Positions 1 to 14,317 of a DNA stretch of 64,000 nucleotides are shown here, piece after piece. Position numbers and translations under genes: made by a program. Source of the stretch: Desulfobacteraceae bacterium (lineage in GTDB: Bacteria; Desulfobacterota; DSM-4660; Desulfatiglandales; Desulfatiglandaceae); the NCBI GenBank assembly GCA_030613055.1, contig JAUWMR010000005.1:1-64000 (forward strand), given 5' to 3'. Below the pieces are notes generated by a model. That model had not been told where the DNA came from and searched no databases. It worked only from the letters and a program-made list of their open reading frames with translations. The stretch's first letter is position 1, and each line of letters opens with the position of its first letter.

Positions 1-514
1 TTTTGTATTCTTCTTCTGATACACCTAAAGCCTCCACTATGGCTTGAGGCTCAAACGATTCGGAGATGAGATAGCGTATTCCCGGTTCACCGGAGAGCTC
101 TTTGGCCCTTGCTATCATCAACTCGATTTTTTTATTTCCAACAATTTCGTCCACATCGGCTCTATGTTTTGAAGCTAAAAAGGAGGGCCAATCTCTACCC
201 AGGTCAGCAATTATTTTCATGGCGGTGGCGTAGGTGTCTTTGATGTCATCCAGGCCCAGCGCGGAAACCGCCTGGTTAAAATCCTGCATAAACGGCCTGC
301 CAACCCGGTTGCGTGCTTTTACCGCCGCTGTTAACTGCATCCAGTTACCACCGTGCTTCGACACATTATAGCCAGTTGTATCCACCTCTTCGGCCATTTT
401 CCTTGAGGTTGCCAGGCTGTTTGCTTCGGTAAAATCCTCGTCAGTGTATTTTTGAATCTGCTTTTCGATGAGCATCCATAAAGGTTCTTTACCCTCATTG
501 CGATTTTCTGGCAT
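1..514 (-). CDS. hypothetical protein, partial (C-terminus outside window)
   Basis: An open minus-strand frame runs from an ATG at 514 to the window edge without a stop, giving about 171 codons. A good ribosome-binding site (GGAAGGA at 521-527) sits 6 bases upstream of the ATG. The visible protein begins MPENRNEGKEPLW and is soluble, rich in charged helices, with no signal peptide or membrane segment and no motif I recognise. It faces the same way as the defence genes at 1-11.6 kb, but a transposase scar separates it from the ABC-3C operon, so membership of that system is not shown. No function is proposed. Confidence 0.7.
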   Translation of the reverse strand, partial: MPENRNEGKEPLWMLIEKQIQKYTDEDFTEANSLATSRKMAEEVDTTGYNVSKHGGNWMQLTAAVKARNRVGRPFMQDFNQAVSALGLDDIKDTYATAMKIIADLGRDWPSFLASKHRADVDEIVGNKKIELMIARAKELSGEPGIRYLISESFEPQAIVEALGVSEEEYK

Positions 515-651
515 AATTTATCCTTCCTAAATTAAAATTGATTAAATTGATAAGAAATTGCTTACTCGAGGAAGGATTATAGGGTAATTAGCCTTTAGCG
601 TCAAGAAAATTGTCACCACACGAAACTCCAATATAATGATCGAAAAAATCG

Positions 652-868
652 TGGGGGGGGCGTCCGTAATTAAGTAAATAATTTGACATGATAATGAAAT
701 ACTGAAAAAGGGGACAGTCACATAATGATTCATTGGCAGATTTGGCAAGACTTCTTTGTATGGCTGGTCAAGGGGTCGGTTATGCCGTGCGAAGGGGCAA
801 GCGAATCGCTAAAGTAAACAATTATAGACTCATAGATTGAGTTGGTTACTTATTGACGGACGTCCCCC
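652..868. mobile_element. degenerate REP-flanked transposase element (RAYT scar)
   Basis: Two inverted copies of a REP-like sequence bound this stretch. The left one (653-677) has a G-run followed by CGTCCGTAATTAAGTAA, and the right one (844-868) reads TTACTTATTGACGGACG and then a C-run. Between them lies only the 3' end of a REP-associated tyrosine transposase gene. The rest of the transposase has been deleted, so the element cannot move by itself. The whole gap from 515 to 974 holds nothing else I can support. Confidence 0.6.
718..840 (+). pseudogene. C-terminal remnant of a REP-associated tyrosine transposase
   Basis: The frame ending at the TGA at 838-840 reads SLADLARLL, then GVGYAVRRG and ends NNYRLID. 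This is the usual C-terminal helix-turn-helix tail of RAYT/TnpA-REP (Y1_Tnp, IS200-like) proteins. About 40 codons remain. The HUH and catalytic Tyr region is absent and there is no plausible start codon with a ribosome-binding site, so I call it a relic. Confidence 0.55.
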
Positions 869-974
869 ATTCCCACACTTAACCGCCATCTATTATGTCA
901 AGAGTGAAGACGCGCCCCCTCTGTCTCCATTTGATACTGCAGCAGTAAATAAAAAAAACTATAAAATAGTATAC

Positions 975-2708
975 CTACGCTTCATACTGCATATCAACCT
1001 CAATCCCTAAAAGCTTTCCGGATGCCCCCTCATCCGTAAGCTCCAACACTACAGCATCCTCAACAAACTCACTATATTCTTGATCAGCGAAGTACTCTCT
1101 TATTTTTTCCAATTGATCCTGATTAACCGATGCAATGTACTGTGTACCCTGATTAGAGGTGACATCTTTGGCGATCTTAAAGGCAGTTGCAGCCTGGCGT
1201 GGGTCCATATTGCTAAAAAGTCTACTATCATGAAAAATAAAATTCACTTCATGATTATGACGCAGTATCAATACCGTCATATCAAAACAGAAAATCTTTA
1301 CTTCATTAATGCCGTCAGATGCATCGTCCTTTATATGCGCATTAATATCAAAACGGATCTGATTGTCACCTTCATTATTTTTAACTGTAAGGCCACCGGG
1401 CCGCTCTCCATAAAACCGCTCTGAGAAGGATCGAAAAACGCTAAGGTTATTTTGCAAAAGAGGTTTTATCTCATTCAAATATTCATTTGCTCTAATTGTA
1501 TCATTGCTCATTGCAGCTGCGATTCGTTGTATGCTGTTGCTGTATTTCTCGATCAATTTTTTATAGTCTTCAAGTTTATCTGTTACACCTTTATAGTAGC
1601 TAAGCTCATTGGTCAAAGCCACAAATTCATCCAGTGCTCCATGCGTACCAAGAAATTGCATTAAATGATTGGACCTATCATTCAGCCCCTCAAGCATGTC
1701 CCTGTATGTCTCTTCCTCTTTTAGCAGTTTATTCTTTTCGGCTGTTAACCGTCTTATTCTGGTTTCAAGCAAATTTATATGAAAATCCGCTACCTCCTCG
1801 ACAGTGTGTTTAACAGCCTCAGACAAGGCCACTTGAGCCTCTTCATATACTTTGAACAGCTGATCAGGGGCAAGGTCAGGTCGCAGCTTGAGGCTCTGGT
1901 CAATATTCTTAATTGCATTGGTTATTAAAGCGATCTGATTACGCAGCTTTTGAGCTTCTTTTGTAACCTCGTTGGCCTCTTCCTGCCGCTCATGGTAATC
2001 TTCAGCCACCTCAAAGTCCTGTAGCTTTTTCTCAAGTTTGGCAATTTTCATGTTCAAATCCTGCAACTCAATGTCAGGATCTTTATTCTGTGTAAAAAAT
2101 TCGATAAAAATCGGATCTTTCTGGAGATTTTCACGAAGTTTTCTGATCTCTTCCTTCTCCATCCGAAGGCGGTTCTTATCTATTATCAGGCCAACATCCA
2201 GTCCAAGCAAAAATGCCATGCAAAGTTCCTGCTGGTATGGCGTCCCGTTAGGCTCTGCCTTATCAAAGGCTTCATAGCTGCTTCTTTGGCGCCGGATAAA
2301 AGAACAAATAAGTGAACGAAAAGTCAAATATTTTATGGGCTCGGGTAAATTAAACACTTCTTTTTCCAAAGTGCTGGCAAACTCTCTCTGCCTTCTCACC
2401 ACACCATCAACAATAAGCCTATCTTGACTGGAAGTCGATCGGGTTACCGTGATCTCTTCACCTCTATGCTCAAATTTAAGTGTAAATTCCCAATCGGGTA
2501 TTTTTTCCTCAAAAGCTTTAATCTTATTAGAACCCAGACAAAAATGAATTAAGGCTATAATCAGTGACTTGCCAACACCATTATACGTACGGCTATCATC
2601 TCTCCTCTCTGGATCTTTCTTAGTTCCTGTAATTAAACTAACACCCGTCTTATTAAATATGACAGGATGAAAGCTATCTTGATTTGCAGTAAGGCTTATT
2701 AATCGCAT
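975..2708 (-). CDS. ABC-3C system SMC-like ATPase (DUF2326 type)
   Basis: This 577-residue protein is the ATPase of an ABC-three-component (ABC-3C) conflict system. The N-terminus has a Walker A motif (YNGVGKSLI, about residues 43-51) followed by HFCLGSN, typical of DUF2326/RecF-SMC-like ATPases. Residues about 175-410 are long charged helices, probably a coiled coil. The C-terminal third carries the second ATPase half, with a Walker B-like strand (VNFIFHDS) and a following D-loop region. There is no membrane segment or signal peptide. Its start overlaps the end of the small gene at 2699-2944 by 10 bases, so the two are translationally coupled, and the effector gene lies just upstream. Family knowledge links such ATPases to DNA-end or invader sensing. 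The trigger here is unknown. Confidence 0.85.
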   Translation of the reverse strand: MRLISLTANQDSFHPVIFNKTGVSLITGTKKDPERRDDSRTYNGVGKSLIIALIHFCLGSNKIKAFEEKIPDWEFTLKFEHRGEEITVTRSTSSQDRLIVDGVVRRQREFASTLEKEVFNLPEPIKYLTFRSLICSFIRRQRSSYEAFDKAEPNGTPYQQELCMAFLLGLDVGLIIDKNRLRMEKEEIRKLRENLQKDPIFIEFFTQNKDPDIELQDLNMKIAKLEKKLQDFEVAEDYHERQEEANEVTKEAQKLRNQIALITNAIKNIDQSLKLRPDLAPDQLFKVYEEAQVALSEAVKHTVEEVADFHINLLETRIRRLTAEKNKLLKEEETYRDMLEGLNDRSNHLMQFLGTHGALDEFVALTNELSYYKGVTDKLEDYKKLIEKYSNSIQRIAAAMSNDTIRANEYLNEIKPLLQNNLSVFRSFSERFYGERPGGLTVKNNEGDNQIRFDINAHIKDDASDGINEVKIFCFDMTVLILRHNHEVNFIFHDSRLFSNMDPRQAATAFKIAKDVTSNQGTQYIASVNQDQLEKIREYFADQEYSEFVEDAVVLELTDEGASGKLLGIEVDMQYEA

Positions 2709-2944
2709 CTTAGCAACTTTCCGTCTTTATGCATGCTAATAGCCCCAATAGCATAAAGAAAGCTTATAGTTATAACCAAATTATCAAAGCTTTGGTATGA
2801 TGGAAAAACGTCTGTGTCACGCACCTTCTCAAAATCCGACCATAGCGCATCTACAGTCTTAGGCTTATCAAGATCCTTTAATACAAAACCACCAAAACCA
2901 ATAATTGATTCGCTCAGTTTGATATGTTTGCCGGGAAGAAGCAT
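2699..2944 (-). CDS. ABC-3C middle component (MC6-like)
   Basis: This is a short soluble protein of 81 residues. It begins MLLPGKHIKL and ends with a predicted helix-strand unit (LYAIGAISMHKDGKL). Size, position between effector and ATPase, and the SFLYAIGAI-type ending match the small middle components of ABC-3C systems, which are winged-helix-like adaptors. It overlaps the ATPase start by 10 bases and follows the effector gene by 18 bases. The ribosome-binding site is weak, consistent with coupling to the upstream gene. The MC6 subtype assignment is from memory of the family and less certain than the ABC-3C context. Confidence 0.75.
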   Translation of the reverse strand: MLLPGKHIKLSESIIGFGGFVLKDLDKPKTVDALWSDFEKVRDTDVFPSYQSFDNLVITISFLYAIGAISMHKDGKLLRCD

Positions 2945-2962
2945 CGTTTTTTATTTACCGCG

Positions 2963-3901
2963 TTAAGATGGGTCCTCAAAAATATCACATGATTCAAAGT
3001 AATATGCCATAAGTACAAAAGCGGCGTCTTGAACCGATTTTGATTTCGAGGGTGTAATTTTATTCAAAATATGAAAGAAGCGTAGGTCGCCTTCACTAAC
3101 ATCATCAGAAACCTCAGCGTAATTTTCCTCGATCGATGCCAGGTAAATCTGATTAAGAGCATCTCGCAACTCCTGCCGGGCAAAAACGCTGTTTTTATTA
3201 AAGTACTCATCAATCGCCCCGGATTGATAAGAGCCACTCTGCAAGAATGCAGCAACACTATGGCTGAGCCCATTAAATTGTATTTTTTTATCAAAGTCCG
3301 GGACCCTTAAAGATGATATTAAATCAATCGGGCGACTTACTTTGATAATATGCTCAATCACTTCCGATAATAATGAATAATCTACATCGCTTATACCCGC
3401 AGGATCTGGTATAAAACCGACTAAAGTTAAGATCTTATCAGCATCCAGAGAAAATAATACATCCTCTATATGTTTTGCTAAAAATACCTCTGATACCTCT
3501 AATTTATATTCTGTTTTTATTTCTGCAAGGGCCTCCTCTATAGCAGGGAAGCTACCTTTATATTTATCATTAAAAACAAAACGATACCCTTTTATTGGAT
3601 GGATATGGTGCCAGGCATCTATTAAGCCCTTAAAATCATCTCGTGCCTTGGCAACAGCAACATTTCTGGTGCGTGTCGCCTCCGGATTCTCAGGGGCGTA
3701 AACCTGATAATAGTAGCCAAGGGAGGGAATGTATCCATCATTTTTCCGATCACCATATCGGCCTTGTGGTTTAATTTGGATAAAATCAGGATAAGCATAA
3801 TTCATAATCTGGGTAAAAAGCTGTTCAAACGCTTGGCCTTCATTTTCATAAATCTTTTTTTTAAATAATATCCTGGCTAGGACTTTTTCTTGGGATGTCA
3901 T
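2963..3901 (-). CDS. ABC-3C effector with nuclease-like N-terminus
   Basis: This 312-residue protein, counted from the ATG at 3901, is first in the ABC-3C operon. A TTG at 3907 is a possible alternative start. Residues about 40-75 carry GRYGDRKNDGYI, then YYYQVYAPE. The spaced Asp and Q-x-Y pattern resembles a PD-(D/E)xK-type nuclease core. The C-terminal half is helical and unlike known domains, as expected for an ABC-3C C-terminal domain. The gene precedes the middle component and ATPase on the same strand with an 18-base gap. Inference: the ATPase and adaptor hold this toxin in check until infection. The nuclease call rests only on the motif pattern. Confidence 0.72.
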   Translation of the reverse strand: MTSQEKVLARILFKKKIYENEGQAFEQLFTQIMNYAYPDFIQIKPQGRYGDRKNDGYIPSLGYYYQVYAPENPEATRTRNVAVAKARDDFKGLIDAWHHIHPIKGYRFVFNDKYKGSFPAIEEALAEIKTEYKLEVSEVFLAKHIEDVLFSLDADKILTLVGFIPDPAGISDVDYSLLSEVIEHIIKVSRPIDLISSLRVPDFDKKIQFNGLSHSVAAFLQSGSYQSGAIDEYFNKNSVFARQELRDALNQIYLASIEENYAEVSDDVSEGDLRFFHILNKITPSKSKSVQDAAFVLMAYYFESCDIFEDPS

Positions 3902-4456
3902 ATTCAAACATGCTTTAAGGCTTTGGAATGATTAAAAAAACCACATAAACCTGGACTGTGCGTTTTCGAATATAAACCGTTGAGTTGATAAGATTTTGCT
4001 TTTTTTATGAGAAGGACTGTAGAGAAATTTCCCTTGTGCGTCAAGGAAAAAGGAACCACAACATATGTGGTATTACGCTGGATTGGAGTTCTGAGGTTCT
4101 TCAGGAATATGGGTTGGAGTATGATAGGGCCTTCAAGGAGTGGAAATATTTGCGAGTAAAGGGGGATGCTCTTTATATTTACAGTTTTAAACAAGCATAA
4201 AAGTGGGGCAGGTCTTGCATTATTTCATTTCAGAGATCTTGCCACCATTACAGCCAAATAGAAATTCACACTGTTCTCATATATCATCTGCATATCTTAT
4301 GAATTCAGTGTCATAAATTCCTGACCAAGATAGCAGATATCACAGAGTAGGGTTACATAAGAATTGAGTAGTGCTGGGTATCGCTGCTGCCTCTCTGACG
4401 AGGGGTCAAACGTTATTTTGATCAGAACAGGAAAAATCAATATTTCTATAGACGTA
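3902..4456. other. intergenic gap between ABC-3C operon and STAND-like gene
   Basis: This 555-base AT-rich stretch presumably carries the promoter of the ABC-3C operon near its left end and the 3' end of the 4457-6796 transcript at its right end. Apart from the doubtful small ORF at 3985-4200 I see no gene, RNA or clear repeat. Confidence 0.5.
3985..4200 (+). CDS. small ORF of uncertain reality, possible relic
   Basis: A 71-codon plus-strand frame ends in WSSEVLQEYGLEY and KGDALYIYSFKQA, which looks more protein-like than a random frame. The first 25 residues look like noise, and no ribosome-binding site precedes the start. It may be the 3' end of a decayed gene, perhaps an AbrB/MazE-type antitoxin because of the LQEYGLEYDRA pattern. 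The opposite strand has an equally long frame (3904-4194) that looks like a shadow. Confidence 0.25.
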   Translation: MIRFCFFYEKDCREISLVRQGKRNHNICGITLDWSSEVLQEYGLEYDRAFKEWKYLRVKGDALYIYSFKQA

Positions 4457-6796
4457 TTAATGGGATCTAACTTCTAATCCTTTCCAAAAGGCTGGATTAA
4501 TCACGTAAACAATGTCCGCGTCCTCCCTTTTGCTTATTAGTGATCGCATTCGTTTCATGTCATAACGGACTGAATATATATATTTGGGCTCACCCTTTGT
4601 TCCACGGAACCCCAAAACGCCATACCAGAGAAGTAAGCCGAGAACTTTCTCCTGGACAGCAACATCCGAAGAGATCTTTAACAGTATCGAACGCATTGAT
4701 TCCATGTCGAGTTCCGAAGGGCATTCTATAAACTCGTAAAGACAGTCTTTAGCGGGTGGAAAGACATCTTGCATTTCGTAACCAATATCATTAATGAGCT
4801 GGTTTGAATACTGCTCTTCACCATGTTCGATGTCTTCGACCTCAATTCGTTCATGTCTGAGGTTTATTGCGTGACTCCGACAAAAGCGCAGAAAATCAAT
4901 TAGAGATCGCGGACGCATTAAAGTTCTTTCCAGCATGTAATGACCTGTTTCTTCACCTTGGATGTGGCTTACACAGATCTGTCTCCAAAGATCCTCAAAA
5001 GTAGGTTCTCCCTTCACACCCCCTGTACACACAAACCTGCGCCTTAGCAATTCAAGAAGTAGGGCTGGATCAGTCCAATCTACAAACGCCTGAGCGATTT
5101 TGCCCCTGTCAGGCATTGCAGCAACCATATTTTCATATACATCATTGCGGATAAAAATGATTCCCGTAGTAGGTATATGCTCACGTTCAAAGGCCAACTT
5201 CAATTTGGTCATGGCATCTAGAAGACAACGGAGCGATAGGACATCCTCAGGCTTTATTCCGTGCGGAGGCCAGCCTTTGTCCAAGTTATCAAACAAGATC
5301 CAAAGTGACTCTTTCTGCTGAAGGTAGTGCACTATCTGAGAACGGAGAGCAACCACATTATGCTTATATAGGAATTGTGTTATTTCCTCGCTACTAAGCC
5401 TTAAATCTGCCTTGCCTGCTCTCATGGCCTCAAAGTCTTGAGCTATTCTCTGTGTCAGCTTTAGCATACGCTCAGCGAAATCCCCTTCAGAGACATATTC
5501 ATCAGTCTCATAAAAAGACTCAAGATTTCGGTAAGGCTTATATAGCCTGTGATCTCGAAGGTGTAGCGACTTGTCTTTTTGCAATAACTTATGACAAATT
5601 TCAAGAAGCACTAGGTATTCCCAGAATGCGGTAATAGTATGTTCTCTTGTACCCTTTTCAAGATAGTCCAGAATCTGGTCTTTGAACTTGATGAGCTGGA
5701 AACCCTCCGGCTTTAGATCGAGAATCACATTGCTTTTGTCTCTTCGGAGTCGATCACGAAGCTGAAAAAAGAGCGCTGTCTTTCCAGAGCCTTTACGTCC
5801 CAGCACGACCTGGACTTCACTCCGTGAGGCCCGTCTGAATTCATCTGTCTCAATATAGTAACTGCCCAATTCTTGGAATTCATTCTCTGCGGAAGATGCT
5901 CCCAAAGTCAACTGCATCAAGAAGGTTGATGGCTTCGTGACGACACTCGGTTGCACCGACTGAACACTTTCAAAGAGCGCAGGCGCAAATTCACTCACGT
6001 ACTCATCAATTTGATCCGGAAACTTGAATGAGCGAACAAGATCACGGTAGTCTAAGGGGACAGGATCCTCTCCGGACTGCAAAAATAAAAGAAGTTTTTG
6101 CATTCCTATTGTCAGCCCCGCGACGAATGCAGCTCGGTAGTTGTGAACTTCAGCGTTGGTATAATGATTGGGAAGTAAAGGTATTATGACACCGTGTGAA
6201 AGAGCGACGTTTTCAATGGCTTCTTGTGCAGACAATCGTCCGTGCTCCTCTGGGTCGAAGGAACGGTAAAACAATCGGCCTTTCTTGATACGGGCGATTA
6301 ATCGTGTTTCCATGTCACCCTTTATTTGTGGTAGGATGAGATATACTGGTGTTCTTATACTAGTGGCGGTTTCATTGAACTTCAGAGGAGCCAAGTCAGT
6401 AATGCTGGTAATGAAGGATGCTAGACTGGTGGAATCCGTGTATGATTTATAGCCAAGTGTATCGAAGATTCCGACTGACCGGATAAGATCACTATCTGGA
6501 AGGATACGGTCGTTGCGTACAAGGATTGCTCGTTTCTTACGACCTATTGCATAACCGATTTCAAAAACAACGTTGAAGTTAAGACGTGTGATATCAGCGA
6601 TGAATGCCGTACCGCCATCAATGAGTTTGAGAACCTCAGTAGATATGAAGCGACCTGGAACATCGCTTTCTTCCCAACTGTTAAGCTGACGGAATCTTTC
6701 GTGCTTGTTAAGTCCTTCTAAGCTGCGGCAAATCGTTTGACCAATTTCTTCTGGATCAGCTGGGTAGGCCATGAGGCCTGAAATTTCTGGAGACAT
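4457..6796 (-). CDS. STAND-like P-loop ATPase with tandem TIR-like N-terminal domains
   Basis: I place the start at the ATG at 6796, because GAGAGG at 6803-6808 gives it good spacing; a longer TTG start at 6856 has none. This gives 779 residues. Residues about 5-130 form a TIR/nucleoside deoxyribosyltransferase-like domain with the strand GGTAFIADITRLNFNVVFEI followed by GYAIG; the Glu of FEIGYAIG is the expected catalytic position. A second, similar domain (about 145-270) has RAAFVAGLTIG, in which that Glu is lost. An ATPase follows, with Walker A GRKGSGKT (about 330) and Walker B WILFDNLDKGW (about 500), then a helical C-terminus. The layout resembles Sll1717-family and other STAND/AVAST-like defence proteins. 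Neighbours on both sides are defence systems. Inference: the ATPase senses a phage product and the first TIR-like domain cleaves a nucleotide. Confidence 0.7.
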   Translation of the reverse strand: MSPEISGLMAYPADPEEIGQTICRSLEGLNKHERFRQLNSWEESDVPGRFISTEVLKLIDGGTAFIADITRLNFNVVFEIGYAIGRKKRAILVRNDRILPDSDLIRSVGIFDTLGYKSYTDSTSLASFITSITDLAPLKFNETATSIRTPVYLILPQIKGDMETRLIARIKKGRLFYRSFDPEEHGRLSAQEAIENVALSHGVIIPLLPNHYTNAEVHNYRAAFVAGLTIGMQKLLLFLQSGEDPVPLDYRDLVRSFKFPDQIDEYVSEFAPALFESVQSVQPSVVTKPSTFLMQLTLGASSAENEFQELGSYYIETDEFRRASRSEVQVVLGRKGSGKTALFFQLRDRLRRDKSNVILDLKPEGFQLIKFKDQILDYLEKGTREHTITAFWEYLVLLEICHKLLQKDKSLHLRDHRLYKPYRNLESFYETDEYVSEGDFAERMLKLTQRIAQDFEAMRAGKADLRLSSEEITQFLYKHNVVALRSQIVHYLQQKESLWILFDNLDKGWPPHGIKPEDVLSLRCLLDAMTKLKLAFEREHIPTTGIIFIRNDVYENMVAAMPDRGKIAQAFVDWTDPALLLELLRRRFVCTGGVKGEPTFEDLWRQICVSHIQGEETGHYMLERTLMRPRSLIDFLRFCRSHAINLRHERIEVEDIEHGEEQYSNQLINDIGYEMQDVFPPAKDCLYEFIECPSELDMESMRSILLKISSDVAVQEKVLGLLLWYGVLGFRGTKGEPKYIYSVRYDMKRMRSLISKREDADIVYVINPAFWKGLEVRSH

Positions 6797-7089
6797 GCGG
6801 AACCTCTCTACAGTAAGGATTTTTTTAAAAATATCCGTGAGATTATCAGAGTGCAATCCCTAGATCGAGTAAGCAAGGCACCCTAATCTACATCCATTGG
6901 AAGAAGCCGGTTCCCGGATCTATCAAATCCTAGATAGATTTGAGCAAATATACGAAATTAAGTTCAAAATCGTTAGACTTAGGATGGCATTTTGCAAAGA
7001 ACCCAGGTTTCTTGTAGAATTTTTCCCCACAGAGTCCTCCTAAATGGAGACGCAGTAACTGAACCAAAAGTAGATCCCGGAGTGAGGTT

Positions 7090-7107
7090 GATACCGAATT
7101 CGGTACC
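7090..7107. promoter_or_regulatory. 18-bp near-perfect palindrome, candidate operator
   Basis: GATACCGAATTCGGTACC is palindromic except for one symmetric pair. It lies in the 417-base gap upstream of the STAND-like gene at 4457-6796, where a repressor site could sit. The regulator is unknown. The rest of the gap (6797-7213) has AT-rich promoter-like sequence and a repeated ATATCC motif (7143-7180), but no gene. Confidence 0.3.
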
Positions 7108-7213
7108 ACAAGAGAATATTTGATACCTTGCCAATCTCATAAATATCCATAATGCTATGATATCACTAAAATATCCAAAATGAAATCTCTGATAAAATCA
7201 TAGATGGTCCAAA

Positions 7214-10200
7214 TTAAAGAACGTCTTCCACTAACTGGATCTCTTCTTCGGTCAATCCATATAGCTTGTAGACGATTTGATCAATAAGCCAATCCGTTTT
7301 TCGCAGTTTTTCCTTGATAGGTAAGAGTCTTGAAAGGGATTTTTCATATTCGGTCTTGACGGTCTCAAAGATTTCCCTGGATTTGAGATTTGCCTGAATT
7401 CTGTTTTTGTTTTTCTCAAGAATTTTCCAGAAGTTTTCAAAGGACAAATGTTCTTCGCCTTTCTGATAATCACCGAGATAGTTTTTAATTTGGGTTTTGC
7501 CTGTTAAGGCTTCGATTCCTGTGTTCCCTTTTTTGTCCGGTTGAACTTTTAATTGACTCTCCAGCCATTCTAAAAATCCCTTGATTTCTTTTTGTTTTTC
7601 CTTATTCATTTCGCTCATTTGTTCTGCAAGGAAAGCGAGGATGTCATGCACTACATCAGTTTGCTCCAATAGTGCATCTTCTGTAATTTGCCTATTTTTG
7701 TTGGTAGGGTCGGCATTGTGCTTATGAACAAGATTAGGATCGGGGAAATGTTTCTTCTCCAATCGTTCTTTTACCAAGATAAATATATTCCTAATTATAT
7801 TTTGCTTCCCTTTTATCCACTCACCGTACATATCTTCGAACTTAGCTGCCATCTTCTCACGCTCATGTTTTGGAGTGACAAAAGAAATGCGGCGAATGGG
7901 TAAAGGGGAGATAAATTGCTTGTTAGCAGAGTAAAAGTTACCTCTGAAGGGAACACTGCCGAGTTTAAAGCGCCAATCGAGCAATTTGCTATTAAGAACG
8001 GATAAAATATAGTTACCACTTTCGAACAATGTTTCTTTAAACAGTATCCCATTAACATCTACGTTATCAAAATAGACCCTCCCCTTAAAATCGCTTATTA
8101 ACTTGAGTCTATCAGATAATCTTGCCACACCCAATTTTGGTCTTTCGTGTTTATCGATGTTCTGTGTCCGTCCGAAGGCATACCAGAGTTCATGATCCAT
8201 CTTTCCCTTTTCTCGGTCCCTCAATTCCTTTTCATGCAACTTCAGGTATTCCCAAATCTTCGGATATTGTTTATCTAACTCTTGAGATTCTATGAGTCTG
8301 GGTCCTTTTTCTTCCAAAATATAAGGGAAAATAAGGAGTTTGTCTGTTTCTGGGTGAGCATACCGATCTATATCTTCCCCTGAAACAAGGGCCTTCAATA
8401 GTCCTGGTTCCAATAGCACTTCTTCCTTAATGGAGTAGGAATAAGCCCTTACAAGCCCATTTCTAACACCAAGCTTTTTGAGTATGTATATATGGTCAGC
8501 GCTTGTTTGAAGCCCAACGATTATTCTTTCCACAATACTTCCAAGGGATTCAGAATTAGAATCTAACTTATCAACTATAGTCTTTTGTTTCCTGGAAAGA
8601 AGAAGCCAGGGATCTTTCCCGATTTTATCTGGCAACTCTTTTAAAAAAGAAACACCTTTTCCGGAAAGATATTTCTTTGTCTCCTCCTGGCTCGTCAACC
8701 GAGGTAGCTTTAAAAAATTAAAGCATTCAGAAGGTTCTCGAAGAAAAAGGAGGCAGGTATAGGTCGTTTGTCCCGGAAAGATCTGGTTGTCTCCAAAATC
8801 TACGACCTTTAATAGTGCCTTTTTCCCCGTAATTAAACCTCTTAGGCCCTGCCCAAAATCAAGATGCATGAATTTATTTGGTAAGATGTAACAAAAGAGC
8901 CCCATTTTCCTCGTTAGTTCTGAACCCTTTTCCACAAAAAGTATGTAAAGATCATAAGAACCTCTGGCGCAGGCAAACCGGCCGAAGTATTTCACTTCAT
9001 CAGGTGATTTGGCGTTTAACTCTTGAATTCTCACATATGGCGGGTTTCCTACCACTGCATCAAAGCCTGGCTTTTCCTTTCTCCGGTCCCCTTCAAAGAC
9101 CTCCGGAAATTCTAAGTTCCAATGGAAAAAATTCTTTTCCTTCGCAATATCCTTTGCTTTCTTGAACCAGGGTTTTTGGCTTAATCTTTGCCATTCCTCA
9201 TCAGATGAACGGAGTTCCCCCTGTAATCTCTGGTAAGTCCCAAAATCAACTTCATTACCAAAATATATACTGGTCCAGACATCGGCAACATCCTGGAAAC
9301 GAGAAAGCTCTCTTCTGAAATCCTGATAACGCCTTTCCTTTTCCCTTATTTGCTCAACAGTATCGGAAGGATGGGTCTCAATTAATTCAAATGATTTAAG
9401 AAGAATGCTTACCTTTTCACGAAAAACGCTTTCAAAAAGTCCAATTTGAACAGGTCCCTCTTTTATTTTCTTCTTTTTCAGTTTTGGAAGGCTTGCTAAA
9501 TCGGCTATGTTTGCACCGATCAAGGAATTCCCGCATCTTAAATGATGGTCAAGGAAATTAAGGGGTCTATCCTTTGAGACCGTATAAAGCCACAAAGAAA
9601 GTTTACCCAGTTCAACTGCTAATGGATTCAAATCAACACCGAAAACACACCTTTCCACAACCTCCCGCCTCGCCCATCTTATGTCTTCCTCTTCGGGTTC
9701 TCTTTTACCATATGGTTCCTGAGCTTCCTTAACTTGCATTTTTTTTGCGGAGCTGACAAGTGGTTCACCGCTTAACACCTTAAGTAGCTCCCTTGCTAAA
9801 AAATCCGTGGCCTCTACTAAAAAGTGGCCACTCCCCATAGCGGGATCAAGAACCTTTAATTGAAGAATTCTTTCTATTGGATCATATCCATGAGAAGGTT
9901 GGGCACCATCAAGCATATTCAGGAGAAAATCCCGGCGTTCCTGATTGCCTCTGGTCAGTTCCCACAACCTTATAAGCTTCTCCTTATCTTCCTCTCCGTT
10001 CTCATTTATTATTTTCTTAAAAATTCCATTAAGGTTCCGCTTGTTATTTTTAATCTCTTGAGCCCATTCTATTTCCCTGTATATCCGTCCTACAAGTGGA
10101 CCAAGGGTATTCTCAATGATGTACTTGACGATATAGTCAGGGGTGTAATAGGAACCAGTTGCTTTACGCTCCCCTCTATCTGTGACAAGGTACACCTCAC

Positions 10201-11557
10201 CATCCCTGACAATATCTTCTTCCTTGATCTTCTTTTTCTGCTTTGTGGCTTCTTTGACGGGAATAAAGATTTCTTTACCTTTTTCTTTTACGGGGACGAT
10301 ATCCTCATCGGCAATCTTGAGTTTGTATTCCAGAAGGCCTTCATAAATAGAGCCTAAATGACGGATTTCAAGGCTGCCGTAATCAATATAGGCCCTGTCA
10401 CTGGAACGGGAAAGCAGGTCCACAGCCTTTGCAATATATAGATTGCCTATCCTGTATTTTTCCAGAAAGTCGTATTTTTCGGGATCAAAAAGCCCGCCGT
10501 TGTATGGCGGTACCCCTAACTCGGAATTCCCAATATTTATGATCTCAAATAATTCTTTAAGCTTATTCCAGTATCCATACGTTGAGGTGGCGATGGGTTC
10601 ACGTTTATCCAATCTTTCCGCTATCTCCTTCTTAAGTGCATCCAGGCTATAGCTTTCCGTGTAGAGCCGGTTTTCTCCTATCGGAAGCAGCGCGCGATAC
10701 TCGGCATAAAGGATGAAGAGAAGGCGGTAAAGGAGGATCAGGGAATTGTCGTGAATTTCTTTAAGGTGTGTGTCCTTTAATTTATTGCCTGGTGTACTCA
10801 AGAAACCCTGAGTCAGGGCCTTCAGGGCCTGATAGACATTTTCTTTAAGCTCTTCACCAACAGCCTTGGCATAATCAACACTCTCTTTATAGACCTTTTC
10901 TAAAAAATCCGGAAAGGCATCCCTTCGGAAGAAGAGATAGAAATATTTGAAATCCTCTATAGAGCCATTTTCGATAAGGTCTTCAAGATCTATCTCGTAG
11001 AAAACATCCAGCCTCTTTGAGCTTTCCCTCTCAAAGATCCGCCAGTATCTTCCATCGGTAAGGATTCCCCACTTTACGCCTGTAAGCCAGAGATACCTGC
11101 TTATTTGAAGGGATGGATTCTGAACCTCAAAGGGTTCCTTTTCTCCTTTAAGTTTCCTGTCTAATGGTCTCCCCCAGCGTTTTGCCTCACCAATACAAAG
11201 AGCCTTGTTAAAATAGTCTTCCCTGGTTGCTTTTTGGGCAATCTTTAAGTCTTCCTTGGAGTGAAACAATGCATAATCAGGGTGTTTAGACCACTCACCT
11301 GATGGGGTTGGAGGCTCGACATCGATTGTCCAGCCTAAGATTTCAAATACTTTATCCAGGAAATGTTTCCTGAGCTGGGGTTCACTCAGGGATGCAAGAT
11401 ACGTCTTATCCCATATGCGCTTGGTTTCTTCAAAGGCCGTCTCAACACGTGAGACTGGGATATTGAATCCTTCTTCTCCAAGAAGAAGTTCATCAAGGTA
11501 ATAGTTGGAAAAAAGTCCTTTGTTAAGGTGAGGTTTCATAGAATGTCCAAATGCCAC
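7214..11557 (-). CDS. single-chain restriction-modification enzyme (type IIG-like, Eco57I family)
   Basis: This is a 1447-residue fusion of nuclease, methylase and specificity parts. The N-terminus has a PD-(D/E)xK-like core (HPDYALF about residue 92, then CIGEAKRW about 120). A helical linker leads to an N6-adenine methyltransferase with motif I DPAMGSGHFLVEA (about 577), the follow-up FGVDLNPLAVELGKLSLWLY (about 665) and motif IV GNPPYVRIQ (about 835). The C-terminal 500 residues resemble a TaqI-like target-recognition region plus helical tail. The start is a GTG at 11557 preceded by AAAAGGGA; an ATG at 11539 is an alternative. No separate methylase, specificity or nuclease gene is adjacent, so it should act alone and methylate one strand of an asymmetric site. 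PglX of BREX is similar in size, but no BREX partner is present. Confidence 0.85.
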   Translation of the reverse strand: MAFGHSMKPHLNKGLFSNYYLDELLLGEEGFNIPVSRVETAFEETKRIWDKTYLASLSEPQLRKHFLDKVFEILGWTIDVEPPTPSGEWSKHPDYALFHSKEDLKIAQKATREDYFNKALCIGEAKRWGRPLDRKLKGEKEPFEVQNPSLQISRYLWLTGVKWGILTDGRYWRIFERESSKRLDVFYEIDLEDLIENGSIEDFKYFYLFFRRDAFPDFLEKVYKESVDYAKAVGEELKENVYQALKALTQGFLSTPGNKLKDTHLKEIHDNSLILLYRLLFILYAEYRALLPIGENRLYTESYSLDALKKEIAERLDKREPIATSTYGYWNKLKELFEIINIGNSELGVPPYNGGLFDPEKYDFLEKYRIGNLYIAKAVDLLSRSSDRAYIDYGSLEIRHLGSIYEGLLEYKLKIADEDIVPVKEKGKEIFIPVKEATKQKKKIKEEDIVRDGEVYLVTDRGERKATGSYYTPDYIVKYIIENTLGPLVGRIYREIEWAQEIKNNKRNLNGIFKKIINENGEEDKEKLIRLWELTRGNQERRDFLLNMLDGAQPSHGYDPIERILQLKVLDPAMGSGHFLVEATDFLARELLKVLSGEPLVSSAKKMQVKEAQEPYGKREPEEEDIRWARREVVERCVFGVDLNPLAVELGKLSLWLYTVSKDRPLNFLDHHLRCGNSLIGANIADLASLPKLKKKKIKEGPVQIGLFESVFREKVSILLKSFELIETHPSDTVEQIREKERRYQDFRRELSRFQDVADVWTSIYFGNEVDFGTYQRLQGELRSSDEEWQRLSQKPWFKKAKDIAKEKNFFHWNLEFPEVFEGDRRKEKPGFDAVVGNPPYVRIQELNAKSPDEVKYFGRFACARGSYDLYILFVEKGSELTRKMGLFCYILPNKFMHLDFGQGLRGLITGKKALLKVVDFGDNQIFPGQTTYTCLLFLREPSECFNFLKLPRLTSQEETKKYLSGKGVSFLKELPDKIGKDPWLLLSRKQKTIVDKLDSNSESLGSIVERIIVGLQTSADHIYILKKLGVRNGLVRAYSYSIKEEVLLEPGLLKALVSGEDIDRYAHPETDKLLIFPYILEEKGPRLIESQELDKQYPKIWEYLKLHEKELRDREKGKMDHELWYAFGRTQNIDKHERPKLGVARLSDRLKLISDFKGRVYFDNVDVNGILFKETLFESGNYILSVLNSKLLDWRFKLGSVPFRGNFYSANKQFISPLPIRRISFVTPKHEREKMAAKFEDMYGEWIKGKQNIIRNIFILVKERLEKKHFPDPNLVHKHNADPTNKNRQITEDALLEQTDVVHDILAFLAEQMSEMNKEKQKEIKGFLEWLESQLKVQPDKKGNTGIEALTGKTQIKNYLGDYQKGEEHLSFENFWKILEKNKNRIQANLKSREIFETVKTEYEKSLSRLLPIKEKLRKTDWLIDQIVYKLYGLTEEEIQLVEDVL

Positions 11558-12014
11558 GAGCGTCCCTTTTCACAGACTCACGCTTTCTAATTTTCCTTTT
11601 TTAAGTATTCCCCGGAAATCAGGCCTGATTGATATAGGTATCGTTCTACCTCATTTGCCAAACGTTCGCATCGTTTCAAGATATCCCTGGCAATTGCTTA
11701 TTCCTTCGCCAGTTATCTTTATCAGCTGTACTCGGGTCACGAGGTAAATAAAGTTGACAAAATCAGGTTAAATTACGTTTAAAATCGAACTTATTGTTTA
11801 ATTTTAATGCAAAATGCCTCTTTGGGTCAAGAACAAACGCGGTTTTTTCTATATTTCATAGCCTGACCATCCAGTTTATCCTGTCCAAAATTTAATGTCA
11901 CAATTGCTTTTAAATAATGAATGTGACATATTCCTGCCATGCCCGCTAACAAAAATTACACCGTAATGTGCTGCCTGCCGGGCTTCAAAAAGCTGAATCT
12001 GGGGAGGGCTTCGA
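11558..12014. other. intergenic gap closing the defence island
   Basis: This 457-base stretch lies between the divergent restriction enzyme and the plus-strand gene at 12015. A possible -35 TTGACA at 11753 is followed 17-18 bases later by GTTTAAA, but it lies 250 bases before the next start. Minus-strand frames around 11580-11760 look like decayed coding sequence, without a recognisable family. Confidence 0.4.
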
Positions 12015-12725
12015 TTGAAACCTAAAGGCCCATACAAAAAGCATATCTACTGGCTGACCAAGGATGAGGAGGAACGCCTGCGGGACGAACTTGCCGCACG
12101 CAATATCAGGTTGAAGTCTGCCAAAGGGATCGTATGCACGCCCTTAGATGAAATCAACAAGATCACCAGCGTTGCGCCGGAGGTGTGGGATGACACCTGC
12201 AAGAGACAGGGGAGCTGGTACCGGACATCTGAGAAAAACGGGCTCTATCTCATTATTAGCTCCTTTGAGCTTGTTGATTACGAGGAACAGAAGGCGGCTA
12301 CCATTACAGAATCGGATTTTGTCCCGCCCAGTCTGGCCAATTTGGATGATAAAAACGCACTCGTACAGGACAGCTCCCTGAAAAAGCGGGTTCCCGATGA
12401 CTGGCTGCGGCCCGGTGATATTGAAAAAAGGATCTACCTGAGATGGGCCAAAAGACTGGGATCTGACGTCAAGGACTACGATTTTCTATACCTATCACAC
12501 ACAGCCAATCACGCCAATTTCATTAACCCCCAATTCTTCATCCAGGATGGCAAGGAGATTATTCCCTATTCCATAGACAAAAGCGCCCATCTCTGCTCCT
12601 GCTGTGTGGAGATGTTTCAGGTTTTGGGAGGTAAATACAAAAAGAAACTGGTTGCCCCATGTCCGGGGGCCACAATTTTTGCCCGCCTCAAGCCGGATCG
12701 TTACTTGTTAGTAGAAAAGACTTAA
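12015..12725 (+). CDS. hypothetical protein with Cys cluster
   Basis: This is a 236-residue soluble protein with a TTG start, supported by GGGGAGGG at 12001-12008 with 6-base spacing. The N-terminus (KKHIYWLTKDEEERLRDEL) is basic and helical. The C-terminal part has HLCSCCVEMFQVLGG and, 16 residues later, APCPG. This could bind a metal or form a redox centre, although Cys-Cys pairs also occur by chance. No transmembrane segment is seen. The next gene, MscS, starts 86 bases downstream on the same strand, so co-transcription is possible but not compelling. I do not recognise the family. Confidence 0.75.
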   Translation: MKPKGPYKKHIYWLTKDEEERLRDELAARNIRLKSAKGIVCTPLDEINKITSVAPEVWDDTCKRQGSWYRTSEKNGLYLIISSFELVDYEEQKAATITESDFVPPSLANLDDKNALVQDSSLKKRVPDDWLRPGDIEKRIYLRWAKRLGSDVKDYDFLYLSHTANHANFINPQFFIQDGKEIIPYSIDKSAHLCSCCVEMFQVLGGKYKKKLVAPCPGATIFARLKPDRYLLVEKT

Positions 12726-12810
12726 AATATTTATTTGCCACAGACCAACGCAGACTGACGCAGAATTTTTTACCTGTTTCTGCGATTGAAACACAACAAG
12801 GAGTTGAAAA

Positions 12811-13893
12811 ATGCAAGATTTTTTTAAACGATTCGACCAGGATTTTTTTATACATCCGGACCCGTTACTGAGCTCCATCATTCATATCCTGGCCGTTTTA
12901 ATTTCGGCAGGCATAGCCTGGTGGGTGTTTAACGTGGTGATCAAGAGATTCGAGAAAAAATATCGTGACCGGCCTTTCTTTGAAAAAAACGAGGCTATTT
13001 TCACTATTCTAAAACGCGCAGGTCACTATTCGATCCTGATCCTTGTGGGCATAGGACTGATCAGCCTGTACCAGGCAACCATTGTAGAGAAAATCTTTTA
13101 TGCCTTTATGATCCTCCTCCTTTGCTCGTTTGCTAACAGCATTTTAGGCAGTCTTGTGCCTTACCTTGAGAGTAAGCTTGCCGCTAAAACAGAGACCGCT
13201 CTGGATGATGTAATTCTTGGTCTGTTTAAAAAGTTTTCAGGCGTGATCATCTATGTCACGGGAATTCTCCTGGCCCTCGATGTGCTGGGCCTGAATATTA
13301 TGCCCTTTGTGGCCGGTGCCGGTGTGGCCGGTATTGCCATCGGTTTTGCAGCCAAGGACACACTTTCAAACCTGATTGCCGGTATCCTCTTGATCATAGA
13401 CCGGCCTTTTGAGATAGGTGACCGCATTGAAATCTGGACGGCCCCGAAAAACGCGGCCACCTGGGGAGATGTTATCGATATCGGACTCAGGGCCACCAAG
13501 ATCCGGACCACGGATAATATAGTGATCGTTATTCCCAACAATGAGATCATGAAAAGAGATATTATCAATTATACGACCATCACAAAGGAGATCAGGGTGC
13601 GAATCCCCATTGGTGTTGCCTATGACGCTGATATCAAAAAGGCCAAGGAGATTATTACCAATATCAGCCTGGAACTGGATTGGGTCATGCGCGATCCTGC
13701 GCCCAAGGTCGTGGTGAGAAATTTTGGGGATTCGGCAGTCAACCTTCAGGCCCGTGTATGGATAGATGAACCCAGAAAAAGAATGGACACCATCTCATAC
13801 ATCACCGACCGCGTGAAAGACGTATTTGATCAGGAAGGGATTGAGATCCCCTTTCCCAAGCGGGATATCTATATCAAACGGGAAACATCGTAA
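12811..13893 (+). CDS. small-conductance mechanosensitive channel (MscS family)
   Basis: This is a 360-residue inner-membrane channel that releases solutes when the membrane is stretched after osmotic downshock. About four hydrophobic segments lie at residues 23-45, 70-90, 95-115 and 140-160. The pore helix region follows (PFVAGAGVAGIAIGFAAKD, about 165-185), with the Gly/Ala packing of TM3. The signature DRPFEIGDRIEI (about 197-208) leads into the beta domain, and the cytoplasmic alpha/beta domain ends at FPKRDIYIK. Length is slightly above E. coli MscS (286) because of the N-terminal helices. An AAGGAG ribosome-binding site lies just before the ATG. Confidence 0.93.
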   Translation: MQDFFKRFDQDFFIHPDPLLSSIIHILAVLISAGIAWWVFNVVIKRFEKKYRDRPFFEKNEAIFTILKRAGHYSILILVGIGLISLYQATIVEKIFYAFMILLLCSFANSILGSLVPYLESKLAAKTETALDDVILGLFKKFSGVIIYVTGILLALDVLGLNIMPFVAGAGVAGIAIGFAAKDTLSNLIAGILLIIDRPFEIGDRIEIWTAPKNAATWGDVIDIGLRATKIRTTDNIVIVIPNNEIMKRDIINYTTITKEIRVRIPIGVAYDADIKKAKEIITNISLELDWVMRDPAPKVVVRNFGDSAVNLQARVWIDEPRKRMDTISYITDRVKDVFDQEGIEIPFPKRDIYIKRETS

Positions 13894-14317
13894 CACAGGC
13901 TGCCGTCTCCTTAATATATGCGTTACTGAGCATTAGGTTCTTGGTAATGGTTCGCCATTAGAAAAACATCTGACGGGATAATCCCGCCACGGCGGGAATC
14001 TTAATCCAGTTGATAAAACAAGGAAGTGCCTAAAATGCCTAAAATGATCTAAAGTGCCTAAAGTTAAGGCATCCCCATCGACAATTTAAACGAACTTAAG
14101 AAGCTCATAACTTTAGCTCACTTGTATTGGTCAATTACCTTGTTGATATGGAAAAACCCGTGGGCCTTATTTTGAATTACTGAACCTGCCAGGAACAGGT
14201 TTTGGAGAGAGAAAGGCTGAAAGGATTTAAATTAAGAGATCAACAAGACAAGAAAAACCATCCTGTTATTCCTGTTAATCCTGTCAAAATAACCGGTGAA
14301 CAGATACGGTACTTGTT
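13894..14317. other. intergenic region with short repeats
   Basis: This stretch holds degenerate repeats and no gene. A piece related to a dispersed palindromic repeat lies at about 13970-14010 (a CCCGCC/GGCGGG hairpin). At 14029-14066 a TGCCTAAA-type unit is repeated three times. The section from about 14237 to 14290 matches another copy at about 51957-52005. The promoter for the dehydratase operon should lie here but is not clear. Confidence 0.45.

What the first reader, a model, noticed from the sequence alone, without database searches (positions are those of the whole stretch)
4457..6796. STAND-like ATPase with one live-looking and one degenerate TIR-like domain
Two similar alpha/beta domains stand in tandem before a P-loop ATPase. 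The first keeps the Glu-containing FEIGYAIG, and the second has R/A at that position. This is like an enzyme and pseudo-enzyme pair, with the second perhaps a sensor or oligomerisation module. Its neighbours are an ABC-3C system and a restriction enzyme, so a defence role is likely. The re-placed start (ATG at 6796) changes the N-terminus used in searches.
Basis: partly seen in the sequence, partly recalled or inferred. Interest (0 to 1): 0.58.

Follow-up and report, generated by a model that had tools for sequence, protein, structure and literature searches.

The report
TIR-like enzyme, pseudo-enzyme and ATPase
A single bacterial protein joins a probable nucleotide-destroying enzyme domain, a look-alike domain that has lost the catalytic residue but is just as conserved, and an ATP-driven switch; it is carried on plasmids and prophages across many bacterial phyla and is probably an untested anti-phage suicide device.

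Summary
The gene is real: 779 aa, intact, ATG at 6796 with a Shine-Dalgarno-like AGAGAGG upstream. Two tandem TIR/nucleoside-deoxyribosyltransferase-fold domains (residues 2-136 and 142-280) precede a Cdc6/ORC-like P-loop ATPase with winged helix (292-775). Only the ATPase is a named family (NCBIfam NF047389, Sll1717, 308 bits). Domain 2 is not decaying: it is as conserved as domain 1 and has its own near-invariant pocket-side set (E184, R187, N219, R221, D249, D252). The repeat is real (profile-profile score 28.1; 0 of 200 column shuffles reach it). The module is a discrete cassette: of 30 IMG/VR loci examined, 9 carry it and 21 have the bare ATPase. No partner gene is conserved. Best explanation: a single-gene abortive-infection defence in which the ATPase switches on an NADase-like domain 1, with domain 2 as built-in regulatory or ligand-binding partner. 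Fold and conservation are computed; chemistry, trigger and defence are inferred. New variant of a known kind (TIR/NDT effector plus oligomerising ATPase), with an unusual, widespread enzyme/pseudo-enzyme pair.

The parts
4457..6796 (-). single gene, 779 aa: NDT/TIR-like domain 1 + Glu-less TIR-fold domain 2 + Cdc6/ORC-like ATPase with winged helix
6803..6809 (-). Shine-Dalgarno-like AGAGAGG, 6 nt before ATG 6796
   Evidence: read from the sequence
6389..6793 (-). domain 1 (residues 2-136), DNPH1/NDT/TIR-like, with intact catalytic-type Glu
   Evidence: AlphaFold model; VIA Z 9.0-10.2 to DNPH1; profile match to DNPH1/Rcl E 5.5e-6
6560..6562 (-). codon of E79, aligned to the DNPH1/Rcl catalytic Glu; 68 of 68 Glu
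5957..6373 (-). domain 2 (residues 142-280), TIR fold without the catalytic Glu
   Evidence: VIA Z 10.8 to plant TIR RUN1; conservation
6134..6142 (-). codons of N219-x-R221, near-invariant domain-2 signature (65 of 67 each), equivalent to N73-x-N75 of domain 1
6122..6124 (-). codon of V225, position equivalent to E79; I28 V24 L10 A3 F1 T1 of 67
4472..5923 (-). P-loop ATPase (Sll1717 family) and C-terminal winged helix, residues 292-775
   Evidence: NF047389 308.1 bits; VIA matches to Cdc6/ORC
5777..5800 (-). Walker A GRKGSGKT (residues 333-340)
   Evidence: sequence; G333 R334 K335 G336 G338 K339 68 of 68
5276..5302 (-). Walker B region WILFDNLDK (residues 499-507)
   Evidence: D503 N504 D506 68 of 68
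4907..4915 (-). RPR (residues 628-630), sensor-2-like arginines
   Evidence: 68 of 68; the name 'sensor 2' is recalled
975..2708 (-). context only: DUF2326 ATPase of an ABC-3C-type system (PADLOC PDC-M68B)
2963..3907 (-). context only: ABC-3C CTD10 component (PADLOC PDC-M68A)
7214..11557 (-). context only: type IIG / DrmMI-PglX-like restriction-methylase

Best explanation
A one-gene abortive-infection (anti-phage) device. The C-terminal Cdc6/ORC-like ATPase with winged helix is the switch: it binds ATP, senses an unknown sign of infection and makes the chains assemble (inferred). Assembly turns on domain 1, a TIR/NDT-fold N-glycosidase whose Glu79 attacks the glycosidic bond of a nucleotide, most likely NAD+, stopping the infected cell (fold and Glu computed; substrate inferred). 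Domain 2 is a conserved pseudo-TIR: it cannot use the Glu chemistry, but its preserved polar pocket and tandem position suggest that it completes or gates the active site of a neighbouring domain 1, or holds a nucleotide as a licence for activity (inferred).
For: E79 is invariant (68 of 68) and aligns to the catalytic Glu of DNPH1/Rcl (E 5.5e-6). The Asp that DNPH1 needs (D80; role from PMC10603095 passages) aligns to V55, which is I37/V28/T2 of 67. By the constant offset of 16 at the N-terminus of several human DNPH1 rows, DNPH1 Tyr24 faces residue 8, which is Phe in 57, Leu in 10 and His in 1 of 68; PMC11204291 (section 11 read) says NADase TIRs usually carry Phe or Ala there while NDT and DNPH1 carry Tyr. 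Both differences point to NAD+ rather than deoxynucleotides. Precedents: DUF4062 TIR-like NADases in defence (Swarozyc; PMC13174449, Results part 1 read); NDT-type effector of Retron-Eco1 with NAD+ hydrolysis (PMC12405507 passages). ATPase motifs invariant. Mobile: 13 of 136 matching plasmid records cover at least 80% of the query, and 9 of the 30 IMG/VR loci examined hold the full architecture; 8 of those 9 records have an integrase match, 5 over the curated cut-off. No conserved neighbour, so a single gene suffices. Patchy: 1 of 99 searched genomes, the window's own.
Against: No activity has been measured. Domain 1 is structurally and by profile nearer to DNPH1/NDT than to TIR, and the family keeps Y11 at the end of strand 1 (61 of 67). 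Position 8 is Leu in the window protein itself. The Tyr24 equivalence rests on table offsets, not on superposed coordinates. No C-terminal sensor repeats were seen, so the trigger-sensing part is unidentified. Defence families (PADLOC) appear both next to the gene and more than 5 kb away, so no local enrichment is shown. The closest relative (64%) lies between a heavy-metal-transporter-like gene and unassigned frames, with a glycogen-synthase-like gene further along, not in an evident defence island (gene names recalled from the sequences).
Confidence: 0.5

Rival explanations
1. Domain 1 is a deoxynucleotide N-glycosidase of the DNPH1 type that empties or poisons the nucleotide pool during phage replication; the rest works as above.
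For: Domain 1 matches DNPH1/Rcl best by profile (E 5.5e-6) and by fold (Z 9.0-10.2, rmsd 2.3-3.1), also MilB and purine deoxyribosyltransferase. Pfam Nuc_deoxyrib_tr hits 47 of 67 members against 2 of 67 for TIR_2.
Against: The DNPH1 acid/base Asp is replaced by Ile/Val/Thr in 67 of 67; the catalytic Tyr position appears to be Phe/Leu/His. The profile match covers only residues 45-95.
Confidence: 0.15
2. Domain 1 makes a nucleotide signal (an ADP-ribose derivative) that domain 2, a Glu-less receptor of the same fold, binds in the same or a neighbouring chain; the ATPase gates or amplifies this loop.
For: PMC9503650 (passages) states that inactive members of the TIR-DrHyd-SLOG class bind nucleotides as sensors and that members of the DrHyd and TIR groups can make cyclic ADP-ribose forms. 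Domain 2 keeps near-invariant polar residues on loops after strands 2, 3 and 4 (E184, R187, N219, R221, D249, D252, strand limits).
Against: No product or ligand is known; no separate effector is conserved nearby, so a signal would have to act inside the same protein.
Confidence: 0.15
3. Domain 2 is purely structural: an interface that sets the assembly of domain 1, without ligand.
For: TIR enzymes work as assemblies (PMC11204291 passages, mention filaments of EcThsB1 TIR). Domain 2 matches a chain of the RPS4/RRS1 TIR heterodimer (Z 10.8); that RRS1 lacks NADase activity is recalled.
Against: Near-invariant charged residues sit at the ligand side of the fold, more than an interface needs.
Confidence: 0.15
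4. Not defence: a mobile-element maintenance or DNA-transaction ATPase with a metabolic N-terminal enzyme.
For: The ATPase resembles Cdc6/ORC and TnsC; relatives lie on plasmids and prophage-type contigs; the F-plasmid relative lies near the plasmid's RepA genes.
Against: Patchy presence, broken copies (5 of 80 loci have interrupted frames), and a distant antiphage relative, DS-41 (NF053860 28.6 bits, far below its 370-bit cut-off).
Confidence: 0.05

Closest known systems
Sll1717-family P-loop ATPases (NCBIfam NF047389)
   Same: The ATPase and winged-helix part, residues 298-774, is a clear member (308.1 bits, cut-off 75).
   Different: Most relatives seen lack the N-terminal module: 21 of 30 IMG/VR loci examined have the bare ATPase of about 450-540 aa; 3 of 21 matches in the same phylum are shown to carry the pair.
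DUF4062 TIR-like NADases (Swarozyc, TEP1; PMC13174449)
   Same: TIR/NDT-related N-terminal NADase domain; in TEP1 and NWD1 it lies next to a NACHT ATPase.
   Different: No DUF4062 match at E up to 1; no pseudo-domain pair is described in the parts read; the ATPase is a different family.
Nucleoside deoxyribosyltransferase / DNPH1 (PF05014)
   Same: Domain 1 fold, Glu and local profile match.
   Different: Catalytic Asp absent; window protein under Pfam's gathering score (17.9 against 28.8).
Retron-Eco1 NDT-like effector
   Same: An NDT-like effector in a system that hydrolyses NAD+ (PMC12405507 passages).
   Different: There a stand-alone effector in a retron; here fused to an ATPase, single gene.
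TIR-NLR plant receptors (RPP1, WRR4A) and bacterial SIR2-STAND Avs5
   Same: N-terminal NADase-type domain before an oligomerising P-loop ATPase (recalled); ATPase-region matches.
   Different: No C-terminal sensor repeats here; two TIR-fold domains instead of one effector.
DS-41 antiphage protein (NF053860; DefensePredictor, PMC13092281)
   Same: Weak similarity of the ATPase region (28.6 bits).
   Different: Far below the family cut-off of 370 bits.

Membership tests
Sll1717-family P-loop ATPase (NF047389) | Score over the curated cut-off across the whole model | tested here: met
   308.1 bits against 75, model 1-454
TIR-domain NADase | TIR/NDT-type five-stranded alpha/beta fold | tested here: met
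   domain 2 to RUN1 TIR Z 10.8, rmsd 2.7, 131 aligned; domain 1 to DNPH1 Z 10.2, rmsd 2.6, 125 aligned
TIR-domain NADase | Catalytic Glu in the helix after strand 3, domain 1 | tested here: met
   E79, 68 of 68
TIR-domain NADase | Catalytic Glu, domain 2 | tested here: not met
   V225; hydrophobic or Thr in 67 of 67
TIR-domain NADase | Match to a TIR sequence model over its cut-off | tested here: not met
   TIR_2 in 2 of 67 at best E 2.9e-4; none for the window's N-terminus at E 0.01
TIR-domain NADase | NAD+ cleavage | not testable with these tools
   needs enzyme assay
NDT / DNPH1 deoxynucleotide N-hydrolase | Catalytic Glu (E104) | tested here: met
   profile alignment
NDT / DNPH1 deoxynucleotide N-hydrolase | Acid/base Asp (D80) | tested here: not met
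   aligned column is I37/V28/T2 of 67
NDT / DNPH1 deoxynucleotide N-hydrolase | Catalytic Tyr (Y24) | tested here: inconclusive
   offset puts it at residue 8 (F57/L10/H1 of 68); no explicit coordinate alignment seen
NDT / DNPH1 deoxynucleotide N-hydrolase | Pfam PF05014 over gathering score | tested here: not met
   17.9 against 28.8 for the window; 47 of 67 members at E 0.01 or better
STAND NTPase | P-loop and Walker B with STAND/NLR-like ATPase-winged helix fold | tested here: inconclusive
   CED-4 Z 11.9 and NLRs Z 11-12, but Cdc6 13.8 and 2fna 13.7 rank higher
STAND NTPase | C-terminal sensor/repeat region (recalled feature) | tested here: not met
   ATPase and winged-helix matches run to residue 775 of 779, leaving no room
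Swarozyc (DUF4062) | DUF4062 domain | tested here: not met
   not among Pfam families at E up to 1
DS-41 | NF053860 over cut-off | tested here: not met
   28.6 against 370 bits
Any named PADLOC system | Strong match of the protein | tested here: not met
   best is PDC-M28C, E 2.3e-6, residues 490-626 only

The most novel reading that the evidence does not exclude
A self-contained enzyme-sensor-switch: domain 1 makes or consumes a nucleotide and domain 2, a pseudo-TIR with a rebuilt pocket (E184, R187, N219, R221, D249, D252), reads that nucleotide and licenses the Cdc6/ORC-like ATPase. This would put messenger production, reception and effector assembly in one polypeptide, spread across about ten phylum-level groups on plasmids and prophages.
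Probability: 0.2. Interest if true: 0.78.

Novelty: new variant of a known kind. Interest (0 to 1): 0.52.

Why it matters
TIR-type immunity works through assemblies, and why pseudo-TIR partners are kept is an open question. Here an enzyme and a Glu-less partner are locked in one chain, in fixed order, with a separate near-invariant signature in the pseudo-domain, in a family large enough for comparison. The module's clean presence or absence before the same ATPase (9 against 21 of 30 IMG/VR loci examined) allows direct swaps and tests of what the pair adds.

Tried and rejected
Sequence search of the whole protein against the PDB found nothing. tblastn against 50,697 phage records and blastn against E. 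coli genomes found nothing. Rfam found no RNA in window 1-14000. Promoter-like and terminator-like counts around the gene are near the shuffles (11 against mean 7.4; 3 against mean 2.6).

A two-gene system was considered and rejected: clustering 997 neighbouring frames, the largest cluster (5 loci) includes pieces of the gene itself from loci with broken copies, and the next holds recombinase-like frames from 4 loci.

Local enrichment of defence genes was looked for by scanning 132 nearest and 103 more distant neighbours. Both sets contain defence families, the output lists at most 25 families and does not count proteins, so nothing is claimed. Pfam on the 132 nearest found Phage_integrase in 5 and Resolvase in 2.

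Domain 2 profile against PDB sequences gave no relative (best E 1.3). Domain 2 searched alone in IMG/VR gave only 5 loci, all on contigs that already hold the full protein. Domain 1 alone gave 17, of which 8 lie on such contigs; the other 9 were not followed. The whole-model fold search barely tested the N-terminal part, so the two domains were folded and searched without the ATPase. Foldseek's top N-terminal hits, EngA, were set aside because TM-scores are 0.19-0.27 and rmsd about 21.

Rows dropped before counts: 14 of 80 genome loci were left out of the conservation set (L024, L031, L057, L090, L093 frame-broken; L032, L053, L066, L067, L068, L071, L073 without a usable start or N-terminus; L085, L095 running off the contig). 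L002 is in the 68-row set but not in the 67-row alignments A2, A5, A6, A7. Ten of 40 IMG/VR loci were not examined for architecture (L145, L147, L149, L151, L159-L163, L165). The plasmid relatives L010 and L014 are interrupted and were left out.

Phylogeny: the tree needs at least 4 changes of the Pseudomonadota label on starred branches, but labels are clustered; the tool warns that this does not prove transfer.
Full report
What is there. The minus-strand frame 4457-6796 encodes 779 aa without interruption. The gene is single in its 4.26-Mb draft genome, present in 1 of 99 genomes of the relatives search, its own, and in 8 of 297 sampled genomes of the phylum as any match, 3 of them over most of the protein.

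Domains. NCBIfam places residues 298-774 in the Sll1717 P-loop ATPase family (308.1 bits, cut-off 75). The N-terminal 290 residues have no Pfam family over a cut-off: the best is PF05014 Nuc_deoxyrib_tr at 17.9 bits against 28.8. AlphaFold with an alignment of 67 sequences gives pLDDT 89.3 and pTM 0.86 for the whole and 94.1 and 0.92 for residues 1-290: two consecutive alpha/beta sandwiches. The structural second look matches residues 2-136 to DNPH1/Rcl (Z up to 10.2, rmsd 2.6, 125 aligned), MilB and purine deoxyribosyltransferase, and residues 142-280 to plant TIR domains (RUN1 Z 10.8, rmsd 2.7, 131 aligned; RPS4/RRS1 Z 10.8) and TIR-STING (10.5). Flavo-diiron proteins also appear for domain 2 (Z 9.3-10.2), and one MilB and one NDT row align to domain 2 rather than domain 1, so part of the signal is the general fold. 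The ATPase part matches Cdc6 (Z 13.8), 2fna (13.7), ORC, 2qen, TnsC, CED-4 and plant NLRs.

Repeat. Domain 1 and domain 2 profiles align over 30 columns, score 28.1, E 3e-4, probability 40%. None of 200 column-shuffled domain-2 profiles reached that (mean 12.4, sd 2.4, maximum 20.8) and the reversed one gave 12.6. The register pairs N73/N219, N75/R221, E79/V225, G81/G227, G85/G231.

Enzyme and pseudo-enzyme. In 68 homologues E79, N73, N75 and G48 are invariant, D68 and W41 in 67. In domain 2 of the 67-row alignment the E79 position is I28 V24 L10 A3 F1 T1, never acidic. Yet mean column identity is 47% for domain 1 and 49% for domain 2, and domain 2 keeps E184 (66 of 67), R187 (66), N219 (65), R221 (65), P247 (66), D249 (65), D252 (65), R178 (62) and R251 (60). 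With the strand limits, most of these lie after strands 2, 3 and 4, the side where the active site of this fold lies. So domain 2 is a conserved non-Glu module, not a decaying copy.

Chemistry. The domain-1 profile finds DNPH1/Rcl at E 5.5e-6, with E79 on the catalytic Glu. DNPH1 uses Y24, D80 and E104 (PMC10603095, passages). The D80 column is I37/V28/T2 of 67 here. The N-terminal offset of 16 shared by several human DNPH1 rows puts Y24 on residue 8, Phe in 57, Leu in 10 (the window included) and His in 1 of 68. PMC11204291 (section 11 read) reports that NADase TIRs usually have Phe or Ala at this place, and Tyr in NDT and DNPH1. I therefore favour NAD+ over deoxynucleotides, but fold and profile lean to the NDT side (47 of 67 members hit PF05014, 2 of 67 TIR_2), so the substrate is open.

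ATPase and module. Walker A, the DNxD Walker B region and R628-P-R630 are invariant in 68. The N-terminal pair is a discrete cassette: of 30 IMG/VR loci examined (of 40 found), 9 have about 295-347 residues before the ATPase and 21 have 45 or fewer. The F-plasmid relative (L017) lacks the pair but has about 220 extra C-terminal residues; I took them for a PD-(D/E)XK-like nuclease by eye, and Pfam did not confirm it. The same ATPase is thus seen with different partners.

Context and spread. In the window the gene lies between an ABC-3C pair and a type IIG enzyme, all on the minus strand with gaps of about 550 and 417 nt. Among relatives no neighbour recurs: a one-gene system. Relatives that cover most of the protein are on plasmids of Ochrobactrum, Rhizobium, Paraburkholderia, Mesorhizobium, Ensifer, Rhodococcus, Leptospira and Leptolyngbya, the Rhizobium and Rhodococcus copies interrupted, and in IMG/VR contigs, 8 of 9 with an integrase match. 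The tree covers 10 labelled phylum-level groups. Five of 80 genome loci have broken frames, as often seen for costly defence genes (general knowledge).

How it most likely works. Shown by computation: architecture, repeat, Glu and its loss, conservation, mobility, absence of partner. Inferred: ATP-driven assembly on infection, NAD+ cleavage by domain 1, cell arrest, and a partner or ligand role for domain 2. Precedents are Swarozyc (PMC13174449, abstract, Results part 1 and passages), the NDT effector of Retron-Eco1 (PMC12405507 passages), and the statement in PMC9503650 (passages) that inactive members of this fold class bind nucleotides as sensors.

Literature. 'Sll1717' with 'ATPase' gives 0 papers in the held library; searches for tandem TIR, NDT with STAND/TIR, and PF05014 with ATPase showed no description of this architecture in the listings. 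DS-41 of DefensePredictor (PMC13092281, passages) is a distant ATPase relative by NCBIfam only. In PMC13142454 (passages) the tandem TIRs are in an amoeba protein; in PMC7159879 (passages) inactive domains and DRHyd effectors are described in other conflict systems.

Verdict. A sound observation, with its pseudo-enzyme idea strengthened and corrected: the second domain is a conserved Glu-less partner. New variant of a known kind; defence role likely but untested.

Noticed in passing
L017 2968-5061 (F plasmid NC_002483): The E. coli K-12 F plasmid encodes an uncharacterised Sll1717-family ATPase (291.9 bits) with about 220 extra C-terminal residues that look like a PD-(D/E)XK nuclease by eye; Pfam does not confirm the nuclease.
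   Followed up: partly
L136-L166 (IMG/VR contigs): Many virus or prophage-type contigs carry a bare Sll1717-family ATPase of about 450-540 aa without the TIR-like pair; its partner or effector is unknown.
   Followed up: partly
window 975-3907: ABC-3C-type pair (DUF2326 and CTD10, PADLOC PDC-M68B/M68A) directly downstream of the gene.
   Followed up: no
L014 4918-12396 (Rhodococcus qingshengii plasmid): An interrupted copy of the gene lies between an annotated TIR-domain protein and a DUF4062 protein, a cluster of TIR-like genes.
   Followed up: no
G000:C34:59343-59660 and G000:C23:11527-11796: Two weak Sll1717-type P-loop matches in the same genome, in open frames of 679 and 561 aa.
   Followed up: no
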